A stretch of DNA of 37,470 nt from Gammaproteobacteria bacterium (lineage in GTDB: Bacteria; Pseudomonadota; Gammaproteobacteria; Enterobacterales; Kangiellaceae). Positions 1 to 9,080 of the stretch are shown piece by piece. The stretch spans positions 1 to 37,470 of the forward strand of contig JAUIHB010000005.1 in assembly GCA_030432465.1 (NCBI GenBank), read 5' to 3'. Under the pieces are notes generated by a model, which saw nothing but the letters and a program-made list of their open reading frames with translations, was not told where the DNA came from and made no database searches. Both the position numbers and the translations under genes were made by a program. Positions within the stretch are counted from its first letter, which is position 1; the number at the start of each line of letters is the position of its first letter.

Positions 1-277
1 AAAATTAGATAATAATGATAAAGAATCAATAAGTTAGTGAACTTTTAAATGGCTTTTAACTCTAATTATGTGCGATTTTAATTAATCAGTAAATCGAAGT
101 TACAAATAAACTTTTGAGTTATCTACTTAATAGTCTATTATTAATTAAACTTGTTTTCATAGCATGAAAGTGTTAGAAAATGAACAGTAATAAGTATAAA
201 ATACCCCCCAGTTTTCGGGATAACTGATATCTTAAGTATTTTTAAGTAGTTACTTAATCACAGAAAGGGTTATAAAA

Positions 278-475
278 ATGGAAGATAAAGTTGCAGAACA
301 TACTCTTTGGACGAGCAAAAACAAGGAAAGATCAGGTTTACCAGAGACTAAAATATCTCCTGAAGTAGAAAAAAAGGTTGCGGATGCTTTTGAAAAGAAA
401 GCAGACCATCAAGAGTGTCTACGTCCTTTTCAAACTCTTTTTGAAGAATCAGATTTAGCGAAGATACTCGCATAA
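278..475 (+). CDS. Small hypothetical protein (65 aa), probably co-transcribed with the downstream peptidase-like gene
   Basis: ORF with upstream purine-rich AGAAAGGG; stop lies 26 nt before the next gene on the same strand; charged Lys/Glu-rich sequence; no family recognised. Confidence 0.55.
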   Translation: MEDKVAEHTLWTSKNKERSGLPETKISPEVEKKVADAFEKKADHQECLRPFQTLFEESDLAKILA

Positions 476-501
476 TAGAAATAATTAAAAAAGGAATTTA
501 A

Positions 502-2079
502 GTGAATGAAGCTAAGCCACTGATATTTGGCCGCTTCGGTGACTCTGATGACTTAATCAGCTCTTTTTTAGACTCTCAACCGGAGTTCACTCAGGCTAAG
601 TATCTTCAATGCTATTTAGAAGGCCTTGATACCAAATCCTATTTAATAGAACAAAACTATTTCGATCGAGACTACCTTGAAGAGTTCTCCTCTTTTTACA
701 GTCTTAGTGCTCGAGGCTATCCAAATGTTTGTAAAAGAATCCACTTTTTCGACTCCGATGAAATTAATCGAGATTTATTTGAAATTGCTTGCTCTGGGGA
801 CATTCACGCTTGTAAAAAATTACAGAATTCTTATGTAGGCTTCTCTGTAATTAGACCAATAACCAAAGCTCCATTCGGACGAACTGTTTTCAGATGGTAC
901 GATGATCGGACACCTGAAACTCCTAGAGTCACAGAGCCATCTCGAGATTACGCTTGCCACATAGCGGGCATAAAGCTTTCAGTAAAAGGGTTAGCTTGGC
1001 AACAGCAAGATTCTGGCGTTGCAGCCTGCGCAACGGTGAGTTTATGGAGTATGCTTCACTCATCAGCGTTCGATGCTAGACACTCGATTCCTACAACATC
1101 AAAGATAACTAAGGCAGCTCACGAAAAAGCTTCACTTGGAAAACGCGTATTTCCTTCCCATTTCTTAACAATAGAACAAGTATTGGAAGCAATAAAAGAG
1201 CAAGGGCTCGCACCGGCAATAGTTAAAGGTGATTTAGGAGATAGCTACTTTTCAAAAGATAAGTTTGCCGCTACATGTGCTTCTTTTTTGAGATCTGGCT
1301 ATCCTTTGCTTATAGCTGGTCACCACACTGAAAGAGAAGCAGCTATTGGTCACGCTATATGTGCTGTAGGCTTTCGCGAAGCAGCTCCTATTTCCGAACA
1401 ACAAAAGCTGGTATCCCTACAAGATGCAGAGACTGAGTTCCTTTATATTCATGATGATAATATTGGGCCAAATATAAGATTCAGAATTAACGAACAAGAG
1501 TCTATAGACGTAAATCAACAACCAGTAAAAAAATGCCATATTCATGTAGAAGATCCAGAGTATTTGGATTCTAAAAAGACACTACAAGAACCTAATACTG
1601 GATTCGCCCCTACAATGTTAATCGCAGCAGTTCATGAGGATTTAAGAATATCTTCAGACCAGTTCTTTCAAACAGGTTTTCTAATATCACATAAACTTTC
1701 TGCAACATTAAAAGTTATATACGATAACAATGGTCATAATTTTACTGGATTAGTGTTTAGTACAAGATTCATTAAAATTTCCGATTACATGCAATGTGAA
1801 TTAAGCTCAATATTAGAAGAACAACCGAATATCCTGGGTAATGTAAGACTAAAACTTCAAGAAGAAGTAGCTCCTATGAGTCTACATCTAGGAATATTAA
1901 GAATAGCCCTTCCAAATTCTTCTGTATTATTAGATGTTTTATATGACTCTACTGATTCTGACTTAAACAGACCTATATTTTGTCATATAGTTTACGACAA
2001 AGTTATGAGGGACATATTAAACATGATTGACCAACAAGAAGTAATTAATCTTTTGGGAACAGCGGTAGATGCATTTTAG
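502..2079 (+). CDS. C39/papain-like cysteine peptidase-like protein (525 aa), function unknown
   Basis: GTG start preceded by AAGGA; central segment WQQQDSGVAACATVSLWSM (candidate Gln and Cys176), GHAICAVGF (candidate His284), FLYIHDDN (candidate Asp/Asn), in the order expected for papain-fold/C39-like peptidases. Confidence 0.6.
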   Translation: MNEAKPLIFGRFGDSDDLISSFLDSQPEFTQAKYLQCYLEGLDTKSYLIEQNYFDRDYLEEFSSFYSLSARGYPNVCKRIHFFDSDEINRDLFEIACSGDIHACKKLQNSYVGFSVIRPITKAPFGRTVFRWYDDRTPETPRVTEPSRDYACHIAGIKLSVKGLAWQQQDSGVAACATVSLWSMLHSSAFDARHSIPTTSKITKAAHEKASLGKRVFPSHFLTIEQVLEAIKEQGLAPAIVKGDLGDSYFSKDKFAATCASFLRSGYPLLIAGHHTEREAAIGHAICAVGFREAAPISEQQKLVSLQDAETEFLYIHDDNIGPNIRFRINEQESIDVNQQPVKKCHIHVEDPEYLDSKKTLQEPNTGFAPTMLIAAVHEDLRISSDQFFQTGFLISHKLSATLKVIYDNNGHNFTGLVFSTRFIKISDYMQCELSSILEEQPNILGNVRLKLQEEVAPMSLHLGILRIALPNSSVLLDVLYDSTDSDLNRPIFCHIVYDKVMRDILNMIDQQEVINLLGTAVDAF

Positions 2080-2145
2080 AAAAAAATGTAAGCGCTCACA
2101 TATTTAAAAATATTTGCGATAGTTTTATTTTTCTAATTGTTCACA

Positions 2146-2171
2146 AAAAAGCCTCCCAAAGGAAGCTTTTT
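2146..2171. terminator. Bidirectional rho-independent terminator between the peptidase-like gene and gyrB
   Basis: AAAAAGCCTCC-CAAA-GGAAGCTTTTT hairpin (one mismatch), T-rich on both strands, between converging genes. Confidence 0.75.
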
Positions 2172-2252
2172 CTTTTTCACTATTTATGGTATTTCATTTT
2201 ACGATTTTGACACGAAATTTCATGAATTATGAGATCCGACACTGTTATTCAC

Positions 2253-4685
<2,433 letters not shown>

Positions 4686-4702
4686 TCAAAATGCTACCTT
4701 TT

Positions 4703-5824
4703 TTAATTTCTATCAATTTCGTCAATTTCACTCGTGCTAACCGGTTTTATAACACCATGTTCCACGTGAAACAATTGGGTGCTATTATACCTTTTTTTGA
4801 GCCATTTGAGGGAATCTAGTTGCAGGCAAGAGAGTATTATTTGCACATTTTTTTGTTGCAATAACATTTGTAATAACTCTTTCTGGTTACTTTCATCTAG
4901 CTCAGAAGTGAAATCATCAATTATAAATAAACTATCTTTACCCGTTCTATTCTTCAACACAACAGTCTGAGCAAGAAACATCGCATTTATCGCAACCTTC
5001 TTTTGACCCCGCGAGAAAAACTCTTTAGCAGGATAGCCTTGAACCTTTATTTTTATATCAGCTTTGTGTGGTCCAAATCTTGTTAAACCACACTCACAAT
5101 CGGCATGAAAACTATCAGCTAATTTCTTTTCATACTCACCTGTATAACCGGGATAATATGAAATTTTAAATCCATCGAAAAATTTCACACCTAAATCTTG
5201 TATTACCTTTAATAACTCAGTTAGCAACAATTCTAACATTGCACTACGTTGCTTTGTGACAACCGACTCAAAGAGACACAGTTGTTGATCCCAAAAGGTT
5301 ATCTGTTGTGAAATTTTACTTTTATTCTTTGTTCTTAATAATGCATTTCTTTGTTTTAGTGTCGATTGGTAATTTTTCCAAGTTTCATGATAACTATGTT
5401 CCACGTGGAACAAACACCAATCTAAATATTTTCGACGCTCTTGTGGTCCGGCATCAATTAAGTGATAAGACTCAGGACTTAATACCTGAGTTGGGTAAAT
5501 ACGCGACAATGAGGATAAGGTTGAAATATTTTCACCATTAATCTTAATGGATTTTTGTTTCTTGCTTTTAGAGTACCCTACCCCTAATTTTGTCTGATCA
5601 CTCCCTGCACCAAATACGACAAATGCATCTGAATCTTCTTTAACAACCAAGTCTAGTTTGCTAGTTCTAAATGAGCGTCCAGAAGTTAGAATACTTATTC
5701 CTTCAAGAACACTTGATTTACCAGCACCATTCTCTCCATAAAAGATATTTAATTGTTTTTCCAAACTCAAAATATTCGTCGATAGATTACGAATATCCTG
5801 TAGCTGGAATTTAGTTAAATACAT
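4703..5824 (-). CDS. recF: DNA replication/repair protein RecF
   Basis: Walker A FYGENGAGKSSVLEGI, SRGQKK signature, FIIDDFTSELD Walker B; between dnaN and gyrB. Confidence 0.96.
   Translation of the reverse strand: MYLTKFQLQDIRNLSTNILSLEKQLNIFYGENGAGKSSVLEGISILTSGRSFRTSKLDLVVKEDSDAFVVFGAGSDQTKLGVGYSKSKKQKSIKINGENISTLSSLSRIYPTQVLSPESYHLIDAGPQERRKYLDWCLFHVEHSYHETWKNYQSTLKQRNALLRTKNKSKISQQITFWDQQLCLFESVVTKQRSAMLELLLTELLKVIQDLGVKFFDGFKISYYPGYTGEYEKKLADSFHADCECGLTRFGPHKADIKIKVQGYPAKEFFSRGQKKVAINAMFLAQTVVLKNRTGKDSLFIIDDFTSELDESNQKELLQMLLQQKNVQIILSCLQLDSLKWLKKRYNSTQLFHVEHGVIKPVSTSEIDEIDRN
4758..4773. promoter_or_regulatory. parS: parS (ParB-binding) site 1
   Basis: TGTTCCACGTGAAACA, one half-site difference from a perfect 16-bp palindrome of the conserved parS consensus TGTTNCACGTGNAACA; inside recF. 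Confidence 0.9.
5397..5412. promoter_or_regulatory. parS: parS (ParB-binding) site 2
   Basis: TGTTCCACGTGGAACA perfect 16-bp palindrome matching the parS consensus; inside recF. Confidence 0.92.
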
Positions 5825-5850
5825 AAATACTTAAATGCAGCTCAAACAAC

Positions 5851-6957
5851 CTATAGTCTCATAGGCATAACAACATACAAACTATCTGAATCTTCTGCAT
5901 TTTCAATCAACACACTACTGCTTGCATCACCAAGGTTAAACCGTACATTTTCCGATTTAATGGCATTTAATGCATCAAGTAAGTAACCAACATTAAAACC
6001 AATTTCTAATGCTTCACTAGAATAGTCTACGTCTAGCTCAATTTCAGCTTCTTCTTGTTCAGGATTATTAGCATGTATAGATAATTTATTATCTTCAATA
6101 TTTAGTCTGACACCGCGAAATTTCTCATTACATAATATGGAGGCGCGCTGGAAAGCATCACGTAACTTGTCTTTTTCAGCCACTAATAAACGCTGTGCAT
6201 TTTTAGGTAACACTTTATCGTACTCTGGAAAACGCCCATCAATCAGCTTTGAAGTGAAAACAAAATCACCTAATACGATTCTTATATGGTTACTACTTAG
6301 TGAAAGTGTGCAGGTCTGTTGATTACTGGAAAGTAACTTCCCTGCTTCTAATATGCCTTTTCTTGGTACTATAGCTTGAATTAAATCTTCACTAACAGGC
6401 TTAGCCAAAGTCATTGAAGATAGTGCTAGCCGGTGTCCATCGGTTGCTACAGAAAGCAATTTTTGGCTATTCACCTCAACCAACATACCATTAAGGTAAT
6501 AACGAACATCTTGTAATGCCATTGCGAATTGAGTTTTATCAAATAGTGCCTTAAGTGCTTGAGAATCGACATCAATCGTTACGTCGAAAATAGCTTCTTC
6601 AATATTAGGAAACTCTTGCGCTGAAATAGTTGATAATGAAAACCGGTTACGCCCTGAAGAAAGCTTTAACCGATTTTCTTCAAGCTGCACTGTAATAGGC
6701 TTATCACCGGAAAGACTTTTACAGATATCTAACAATTTTCGTGCAGGGACAGTAATATCACCTTCTATATATTCCCCTTCTAATGGAATACTCGAAGACA
6801 TTTCGATTTCAAGATCGGTCGCAGTTATGATCAATTGACCATTTTCAACCTTCAATAATAAATTAGCTAAAACTGGTAGTGTCTGTCGTTTTTCAACAGC
6901 ACCGGAAACCAGTTGCAACGGCGTAACCAAAAGTTCTTTACTAACTGAAAATTTCAT
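5851..6957 (-). CDS. dnaN: DNA polymerase III beta subunit (sliding clamp)
   Basis: MKFSVSKELLVTPLQLVSGAVEKRQTLPVLANLLL...VVMPMRL C-terminus; start moved from the ORF-track 6978 to the internal ATG giving the canonical N-terminus. Confidence 0.97.
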   Translation of the reverse strand: MKFSVSKELLVTPLQLVSGAVEKRQTLPVLANLLLKVENGQLIITATDLEIEMSSSIPLEGEYIEGDITVPARKLLDICKSLSGDKPITVQLEENRLKLSSGRNRFSLSTISAQEFPNIEEAIFDVTIDVDSQALKALFDKTQFAMALQDVRYYLNGMLVEVNSQKLLSVATDGHRLALSSMTLAKPVSEDLIQAIVPRKGILEAGKLLSSNQQTCTLSLSSNHIRIVLGDFVFTSKLIDGRFPEYDKVLPKNAQRLLVAEKDKLRDAFQRASILCNEKFRGVRLNIEDNKLSIHANNPEQEEAEIELDVDYSSEALEIGFNVGYLLDALNAIKSENVRFNLGDASSSVLIENAEDSDSLYVVMPMRL

Positions 6958-6984
6958 TGCTAAAGCTCCTTCATCCAATATTGA

Positions 6985-8355
6985 CTAACTTGAGAGTGTT
7001 CTCATCAAATTGGTGTAGTCTTCGTTAATATCTTGTGATTCTTCTTTGAGTGATTTTACCTTGCGACAGGCATGTAACACGGTTGTATGATCCTTACCAC
7101 CAAAAGCCTCTCCTATTTCCGGCAGACTATGATTGGTTAACTCCTTAGCAAGTGACATGGCTAACTGCCTTGGTCGTGCTATGGAGCGATTTCGCCGCTT
7201 AGAAAGCAAATCAGAAACTTTAATTTTATAATATTCTGCGACTGTTTTTTGGATATTTTCAATACTAACTTGTTTGTCTTGCGCAGCGATTAAGTCCCTT
7301 AATGCATCTTTAACAAACTCAACCGTAATTTCTTTTCCTGTAAACTGAGCATTAGCAGTAACACGTTTTAAGGCTCCTTCTAATTCTCTGACATTGGAAC
7401 GAATTCGCTTAGCGATAAAAAATGCAACTTCATGAGGTAATTCAATTTTTGACTCTTCTGCTTTTGACATCAATATAGCAACACGCGTTTCTAACTCAGG
7501 TGGATCAATTGAGACGGTTAACCCCCAACCAAAGCGTGATTTTAATCTTTCTTCAACCCCATCAATTTCTCTTGGATAACGATCGCAAGTTAATATAACT
7601 TGTTGATTTCCTTCAAGTAATGAGTTAAATGTGTGAAAAAATTCTTCCTGTGAACGCTCTTTATTTGCAAAAAATTGAATATCATCAATGAATAAAGCGT
7701 CGACGCTTCGATAAAACTTTTTAAACTTATCGATGGTATTGGTTTGTAGTGCTTTAACCATATCAGCAACAAACCTTTCTGAATGAAGATAAATAACTTT
7801 TCCATGAGGTTTATTTTTTAATATTTGATTACCCACAGCTTGCATTAGATGAGTTTTACCTAAACCAACCCCACCGTAAATAAATAAAGGATTGTAGGCT
7901 GTACCAGGGTTTTGCGACACCTGTTTGGCGGCAGCCATGGCTAGCTGATTACTTTTACCTTGAACAAAACTATCAAAGGTAAATGAATGATTTAAGTTAC
8001 CTTTTCTATTTTCTGAGCTGACATTTTTTTTGTCTGGTGCATGCTGAACTGATTTAGGTTGTGCTTGTTTTTTAATTACATTTGAGTTGTTTGGAGATGA
8101 ATTCTCTTTATTGTCAAAAAAGCTATTGGTTCCAACAATATCAAGTTGAATCTGGATCTTATCTTCACCTTCACTAGCTAAAATTTCTCTAATTCGTGGT
8201 AAATATTTCTCTCTTACCCAATCTAAAACAAAGCGATTAGGTGCACGTAAATGCAATTGCTCATTTTCAATTGATGCTTTCAAAGGACGGATCCAAGTAC
8301 TGAATTCAGTTGGTGGTAGTTCGTCTTGAAGATATCTTTGGCACTTATTCCACAT
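6985..8355 (-). CDS. dnaA: Chromosomal replication initiator protein DnaA
   Basis: [22 protein letters not shown] Walker [12 protein letters not shown]-terminal [16 protein letters not shown] DnaA-box-binding motif. Confidence 0.98.
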
Positions 8356-9080
8356 TAGATTTGAGCAAGTTTCTTTTTTTAGTTAGATGAGTATTTTCAA
8401 TACGAATCAGACAATAGACGTATTACTGTGAAAGAGTTCGCCAGTTTAGATCGATTCAGAAAAATGATCCACAGGTTTTATAAAAAAATAAATTTTATAC
8501 TGAATTCAATTAAATTTATCGATCGAATAAATTATAACCAAAAAAATGTTATCAAGGAGGTTACTAACCAATTAATGTTAGTTTAATGTATGAAAACGTG
8601 TGCATAAGGTGATTTTTCTAAATTTTTGATCTTTTTTACATTTTTAGTAAAGGTTTATAAGGTTCTTTTTCGGTTGTTATAGACAAACTTATCATTAGTG
8701 TAATCTATTGTTTAATAATAAAAAATATCACTTATCCACAGAATTATGCGATCCTAATAGTAATTATAATTAGATCTTTTACTTATTATTATAGTCTTTG
8801 TCCTGTAGATAACTTTTTGGACTGGATTAACTGACTTAAGTGAATTTTTATGATCTTTTTTTCCATATTTCATGAAAAAAGCTTATTTTTTTAAATTATT
8901 GAAAATGTTTTTAGTTTTTTTTATCCACAAGCAAATCCAAATAATTTACCATCAGATCGCATATCTAGTCTTTATTTAGGGATATTATCCATATATCTAG
9001 TGTTAAAAGTGTTATCAGTTTATGTGAGTTGCTGTTTGAAAATAGTTATTTACTCGCTGTGTTTAAAAAGTAAACATAAA
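8356..9080. other. oriC: Probable chromosomal origin of replication (oriC)
   Basis: AT-rich dnaA-rpmH intergenic region with two exact TTATCCACA boxes (8732-8740, 8921-8929), reverse-strand TTATGCACA (8599-8607), near-matches (8465-8473, 8804-8812, 8985-8993), three GATCTTTT-type 13-mers (8628-8640, 8773-8785, 8852-8864) and multiple GATC sites. Confidence 0.88.

What the first reader, a model, noticed from the sequence alone, without database searches (positions are those of the whole stretch)
278..2079. Two-gene accessory module beside gyrB: 65-aa ORF plus a C39/papain-like cysteine-peptidase-like protein
Directly seen: two same-strand ORFs 26 nt apart, closed by a terminator before gyrB. 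The 525-aa protein has a Gln/Cys/His/Asp-ordered set of motifs (QQQDSGVAAC176, GH284AICAVGF, IHDDN) in its centre. It also has about 150 aa of N-terminal and about 200 aa of C-terminal sequence I cannot assign, and no signal peptide, so it is probably cytosolic. Inference: the 65-aa product could be a substrate, inhibitor or partner of the peptidase-like protein. A cytosolic peptidase with a small adjacent partner could fit a toxin/antitoxin-like, defence or peptide-maturation role. None of these is demonstrated, and I am not calling a specific system.
Basis: partly seen in the sequence, partly recalled or inferred. Interest (0 to 1): 0.6.

Follow-up and report, generated by a model that had tools for sequence, protein, structure and literature searches.

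The report
Cysteine-protease gene with tiny partner gene
Next to gyrB lies a mobile two-gene cassette, a papain-like protein-cutting enzyme and a tiny partner protein that travels with it; the same uncatalogued pair turns up in scattered bacteria across many phyla, often in places where antivirus defences are kept, so it is probably an undescribed phage-defence module.

Summary
The 525-aa protein is a C39/papain-type peptidase: AlphaFold pLDDT 93, best PDB matches staphopains, then IdeS and the Ubl proteases UfSP2 and ZUFSP. C176, H284 and D319 are invariant in 94 of 94 aligned family members; N320 is not conserved. No Pfam, NCBIfam or PADLOC model hits the window protein, although some relatives match Peptidase_C39_2. 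The 65-aa ORF is a real, co-inherited partner. It matches a profile built without it at E 8e-10. In 64 of 83 loci the upstream small ORF is recognised from other loci, while no control segment is; it is under purifying selection.

The pair is sporadic across many phyla: absent from 295 of 296 sampled order genomes, present in 21 of 399 sampled phylum genomes. It sits on plasmids, in a P2-like prophage's gpA-gpQ defence hotspot, in E. coli islands beside ABC-three-component genes, beside restriction systems, and in 14 loci beside bacterial ubiquitin-like (Bub-type) operons. In six congeners the DNA after gyrB differs each time.

Best reading: a two-gene, toxin-antitoxin-like defence module, with the peptidase as effector and the small protein as regulator, probably an inhibitor. 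Activity, toxicity, binding and phage protection are untested; a co-fold proxy was inconclusive.

The parts
278..475 (+). 65-aa small partner protein; 'xTLWT' N-terminal motif and '...RPFQT...ESDLAKILA' C-terminal tail shared with partners of related peptidases
502..2079 (+). 525-aa papain/C39-like cysteine peptidase, three regions, no signal peptide seen
502..996 (+). conserved N-terminal alpha/beta region (aa 1-165) with near-invariant E50, D55, R79, H81, Y111, P119, G126
1000..1458 (+). catalytic core (aa 167-319): Q169, C176 (codon 1027-1029), H284 (codon 1351-1353), D319 (codon 1456-1458)
   Evidence: relatives hit PF13529 over the same region
1600..2076 (+). conserved C-terminal alpha/beta region (about aa 367-525) with near-invariant D482 and mostly conserved T484
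2153..2165 (-). terminator-like hairpin plus T run, by orientation that of gyrB
   Evidence: consensus match only
1..2252 (.). variable region downstream of gyrB (2253-4685, minus strand); in six congeners gyrB is conserved and the DNA after it differs every time

Best explanation
It is a horizontally mobile two-gene module: a cytosolic papain/C39-type cysteine peptidase preceded by a cognate small protein, acting as a phage-defence (abortive-infection or toxin-antitoxin-like) system. Shown here: a papain-like fold, an invariant Cys-His-Asp set, a co-inherited small ORF under purifying selection, sporadic distribution, and residence in mobile and defence contexts. Inferred: the small protein binds the peptidase, most likely through its conserved C-terminal tail, and holds it inactive in the uninfected cell (as an antitoxin would, or as staphostatin does for staphopain). 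Infection relieves the inhibition and the peptidase then cuts host or phage proteins. In a minority of lineages the module lies inside or beside ubiquitin-like (Bub-type) operons, often with an HTH regulator gene before it, perhaps as a second effector arm.
For: Fold: pLDDT 93.2, pTM 0.93; Foldseek PDB hits staphopain 1cv8 E 5e-5 and staphopain-staphostatin complexes 1y4h and 1pxv, prob 1.0; PF13529 above cut-off in two relatives. Triad invariant in 94/94. Partner: leave-one-out profiles find the upstream ORF at E<1e-3 in 64/83 loci and <0.05 in 71/83, with no control segment <0.05; window ORF E 8e-10; dN/dS of the small gene 0-0.41 in the pairs where it could be computed; small-versus-main similarity correlation r 0.73, no permutation of 2000 as high (shared ancestry contributes). 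Defence context: P2-like prophage module between gpA (phrog_91) and portal gpQ (phrog_68), the hotspot described in PMC9122126; E. coli islands beside ABC-three-component genes, restriction enzymes and CbtA; restriction-system and Fic neighbours; Multi_ubiq, E2, E1 and DUF6527 operons. Sporadic: 1/296 order genomes, 21/399 phylum genomes.
Against: No activity, toxicity, binding or phage protection has been measured. The small protein is not modelled confidently in a read-through fusion (pLDDT 34-53 for most of it), so inhibition is by analogy only. Many loci sit among ordinary genes, and known defence families are a minority of 117 sampled neighbours. In 12 of 95 members no partner ORF was recognised. 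The match to staphopain covers only the core (TM 0.64 on the target, rmsd 6.3).
Confidence: 0.5

Rival explanations
1. The small protein is the substrate: the peptidase trims or matures it (at the conserved C-terminal tail or elsewhere) into an active peptide or a switched-on regulator. Defence or peptide signalling could use such a step.
For: The best conserved part across clades is the C-terminal tail (for example ...VTxExLAKTCSL...VDxKSLxEPFTV), as a protease recognition site might be; the gene order, small gene first, fits a precursor.
Against: No transporter, modification enzyme or GG/GA leader motif noticed beside the pair; the tail is only a few residues from the end, leaving little to release; the closest solved structures are inhibitor-controlled staphopains rather than C39 transporter domains.
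Confidence: 0.22
2. The peptidase is a ubiquitin-like-protein protease (processing or deconjugating enzyme) belonging to Bub-type bacterial ubiquitin-like pathways, and the small protein is its adaptor.
For: 14 of 83 other loci carry E1 (ThiF) genes within 2 kb, with Multi_ubiq, Prok-E2_E and DUF6527 genes in several of those scanned; structural matches include UfSP2 (E 3e-3) and ZUFSP (E 2e-2).
Against: Most loci lack such operons; in 399 sampled genomes 21 have the peptidase and 14 have Multi_ubiq with no genome in common; some of the neighbouring E1s already carry JAB peptidase domains; no Multi_ubiq found in the window's own draft genome.
Confidence: 0.12
3. A plasmid- or island-maintenance toxin-antitoxin pair without a specific role against phages.
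For: Presence on plasmids and islands, small gene first, sporadic distribution.
Against: Most homologous loci are not on known plasmids; position in the P2 gpA-gpQ hotspot and beside defence operons favours defence.
Confidence: 0.11

Closest known systems
Staphopain and staphostatin (papain-like peptidase, family C47, with a small cognate inhibitor)
   Same: papain-like core; a small cognate protein encoded next door
   Different: staphopains are secreted and staphostatin is a larger beta-barrel encoded downstream (own knowledge); here no signal peptide, small partner encoded upstream, two extra conserved regions, 12% identity
Peptidase_C39_2 (PF13529) and phage AvrRpt2-type papain-like proteins
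   Same: relatives L004 and L097 pass the Pfam cut-off over the core; best viral fold match is a phage protein named AvrRpt2-like
   Different: the window protein itself has no Pfam match; about 165 and 160 aa of extra conserved sequence on either side
UfSP2/ZUFSP Ubl proteases
   Same: weaker fold similarity; some loci lie beside Ubl operons
   Different: catalytic order differs as recalled (Cys-Asp-His there, Cys-His-Asp here); no Ubl gene in most loci
Bub-type (Iyer 2006 row 6e) bacterial ubiquitin-like operons
   Same: 14 loci adjacent; operon type described in PMC1779556 and PMC13373217
   Different: the peptidase pair is not mentioned in the passages read of those papers and mostly occurs without such operons; the key Bub papers (PMC12885553, PMC12145246) could not be read
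SoFic plus small upstream protein, and other toxic defence proteins with small inhibitors (PMC12249575, PMC10327210; abstracts only)
   Same: two-gene logic: toxic enzyme plus small adjacent or embedded protein
   Different: different enzyme chemistry

Membership tests
Papain-like/C39-like cysteine peptidases | Cys-His-Asp/Asn in that order on a papain fold | tested here: met
   C176, H284, D319 in 94/94; fold hits staphopain, prob 1.0. Spatial clustering of the three residues not measured (no coordinates available)
Papain-like/C39-like cysteine peptidases | profile match to PF13529 | tested here: inconclusive
   window protein: no hit at E<=10; relatives L004 and L097 above cut-off, L077 just below
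Two-gene toxin-antitoxin-like module | small partner gene co-inherited, same strand, adjacent | tested here: met
Two-gene toxin-antitoxin-like module | one product toxic, the other neutralising | not testable with these tools
   needs expression assay
Two-gene toxin-antitoxin-like module | the two proteins bind | tested here: inconclusive
   read-through fusion of L042: small part at low confidence
Anti-phage defence systems | recurrent location in defence hotspots or islands | tested here: met
   P2 gpA-gpQ hotspot, E. coli islands, Bub and restriction-system neighbours; no matched background rate computed
Anti-phage defence systems | match to a catalogued defence family | tested here: not met
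   PADLOC-DB 2.0.0: none for the window pair or nine relatives
Anti-phage defence systems | protects cells from phage | not testable with these tools
   needs plaque assays
Bub-type ubiquitin-like operons | Ubl, E1 and E2 genes in the same locus | tested here: inconclusive
   14 of 83 loci have an E1 within 2 kb; for the window the upstream side is beyond the contig end and Multi_ubiq was not found in the 83% complete genome (the same search finds it in 14 other genomes)

The most novel reading that the evidence does not exclude
The small, charged protein with a conserved C-terminal tail is a Pup-like modifier or guide peptide, and the papain-like protein attaches or removes it (or is aimed by it), forming a second peptide-tagging pathway that has been joined to Bub ubiquitin-like operons in some bacteria.
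Probability: 0.05. Interest if true: 0.92.

Novelty: new variant of a known kind. Interest (0 to 1): 0.6.

Why it matters
A widespread protease-plus-partner pair with no family name in Pfam, NCBIfam or PADLOC appears to be an undescribed defence module. Proteases under small-protein control are, to my knowledge, rare among known phage defences. The pair exists in ordinary E. coli strains, in one intact form and one form with both catalytic residues naturally replaced, so toxicity, inhibition and phage protection can be tested in a standard laboratory strain. Its repeated joining to bacterial ubiquitin-like operons is a second lead: what a papain-like protease does there is an open question.

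Tried and rejected
Pfam, NCBIfam, PADLOC and PHROGs on the window protein: nothing. PDB sequence search with the 54-row profile: nothing credible. Co-fold proxy by reading through the stop between the two in-frame genes of L042: small part at low confidence, so no interface is claimed. An obligate Bub link: rejected, no shared genome in a 399-genome sample. A RiPP-type precursor: disfavoured (no leader motif, transporter or modifying enzyme noticed). Phage records: no homologue in 50,697; IMG/VR: four contigs. A regular expression for the small proteins' C-terminus caught only 51 of 95 and in L004 picked a wrong frame, so profile tests with hand-picked ORFs were used instead. The two Bub papers were not held.

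Full report
What is there. Two + strand ORFs, 278-475 (65 aa) and 502-2079 (525 aa, GTG start), are separated by 26 nt, each with a plausible ribosome-binding site. The window is a whole contig of a draft genome in 388 pieces, so position 1 is a contig end and only 277 nt are visible upstream. The hairpin at 2153-2165 has the orientation of a gyrB terminator.

The large protein. No Pfam, NCBIfam, PADLOC or PHROGs model hits the window protein. tblastn found four plasmid homologues; genome searches gave about 25 more genomes and a named genome-contig scan 79 loci from Proteobacteria, Planctomycetes, Bacteroidetes, Gemmatimonadetes, Acidobacteria, Chloroflexi and others. In 94 aligned members C176, H284 and D319 never change, Q169 is Q in 93, D318 is D in 91, and R79, G113 and P218 are also invariant. 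AlphaFold2 with 54 rows gives pLDDT 93.2 and pTM 0.93. Foldseek against the PDB returns staphopain first (1cv8, E 5e-5, TM 0.64 on the target), with TDE_0362, other staphopains, IdeS, UfSP2 and ZUFSP after it. Relatives L004 and L097 match Peptidase_C39_2 above its cut-off. It is therefore a papain/C39-type peptidase core between two conserved regions. Spatial closeness of the triad was not measured because the tools give no coordinates.

The small protein. In the four plasmid records NCBI annotates a 52-60 aa ORF directly before the peptidase, as it does in E. coli. A profile from 15 loci without the window finds the window ORF at E 8e-10; the next of 507 window segments and 500 shuffles is a shuffle at 0.17. 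For 83 loci with a candidate, a profile from the nearest other loci (under 85% identical in the peptidase) recovers the upstream ORF at E<1e-3 in 64 and <0.05 in 71, while no other-frame, antisense or downstream segment passes 0.05 (candidates were picked by eye beforehand). dN/dS of the small gene was 0-0.41 in the pairs where it could be computed, and similarities of small and large proteins correlate (r 0.73, n 75, none of 2000 permutations as high); common descent alone could give the correlation. N-termini differ between clades, while the last 10-15 residues keep a shared pattern. A read-through fusion of the in-frame pair in L042, used as a stand-in for a co-fold, left the small part mostly below pLDDT 55: no interface is claimed. 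That fusion is only a modelling device; nothing suggests that the stop is read through.

Where the pair lives. It is rare and scattered: 1 of 296 genomes of the window's order, 6 of 369 of its class, 21 of 399 of its phylum. In six congeners gyrB is conserved but the sequence after it differs every time, so this is a variable insertion place. An IMG/VR contig carries the pair between the replication gene gpA (phrog_91) and the portal gene gpQ (phrog_68) of a P2-like prophage; PMC9122126 describes this interval as a hotspot of anti-phage systems. E. coli strains carry it on islands: a tRNA-Pro island with integrase, relaxase and ABC-three-component genes, and in strain R2 an island with antirestriction, CbtA and endonuclease genes. 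L043 and L047 appear to lie beside type I restriction genes (read by eye), and five loci have neighbours of one Fic-like similarity cluster (two sampled neighbours match PADLOC SoFic). Fourteen of 83 other loci have an E1 (ThiF) gene within 2 kb, with Multi_ubiq, Prok-E2_E and DUF6527 genes beside it in several of those scanned and often an HTH regulator before the small gene. This is the operon type 6e of PMC1779556, probably what is now called Bub (PMC13373217). Yet the 21 peptidase genomes and 14 Multi_ubiq genomes in the phylum sample do not overlap, so the pair is an independent module that such operons have sometimes taken up. Among 117 sampled neighbours outside those loci known defence families are present but not dominant.

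How it probably works. The parts are a cytosolic protease and a small co-inherited partner, as in staphopain-staphostatin and in toxin-antitoxin pairs. The likeliest mechanism is that the small protein restrains the peptidase until infection, after which proteolysis stops the phage, probably at the cost of the cell. The structural class, co-inheritance and mobile context are shown; inhibition, trigger, targets and protection are inferred. The chief rival is that the small protein is the substrate.

An informative natural variant. All three E. coli tRNA-Pro-island copies examined keep an open 682-codon frame but have Tyr at both the catalytic Cys and His positions; the small protein read in one of them (L186) ends in SYEA where relatives end in SYSL, and the other copies examined carry the same annotated small protein accession. 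Strain R2 has the intact catalytic set with SYSL. Parallel change in enzyme and tail fits a link between tail and active site, though simple decay is also possible.

Novelty. The parts are of known kinds, but the family has no name in the libraries searched and no paper found in the searchable library describes the pair; subscription literature was not visible.

Noticed in passing
L186:12004-14052, L188:8004-10052, L189:8004-10052 (E. coli tRNA-Pro island): Homologue with open frame but catalytic Cys and His both replaced by Tyr, paired with a small protein whose C-terminus is SYEA instead of SYSL; 19 of 5426 E. coli genomes show this type of match, sequence read in three. Pseudo-enzyme or decay.
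   Followed up: partly
L004, L105, L173, L115 and other 650-776 aa members: A subfamily carries an extra conserved C-terminal domain (GHPSLTGFKPARIAGE...SGRYSxDY) of unknown function.
   Followed up: no
L061, L062, L063, L064, L069; L044, L045, L049, L056: XRE-type HTH regulator genes directly before the small gene, mostly with a divergent Bub-type ubiquitin-like operon.
   Followed up: partly
L043, L047, L055, L080, L110: Fic-like genes of one similarity cluster recur within about 7 kb of the pair (two sampled neighbours match PADLOC SoFic).
   Followed up: no
window 2253-9000: gyrB, recF, dnaN and (by position) dnaA order on the minus strand with a GC-skew turn near 8.3-9 kb, as expected near the replication origin.
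   Followed up: no
L002:3625-5406: A caspase-family gene lies divergently next to the pair on the Hymenobacter plasmid.
   Followed up: no
L060, L031, L034, L035: Longer family members (about 1000-1270 aa) with unassigned extra sequence.
   Followed up: no
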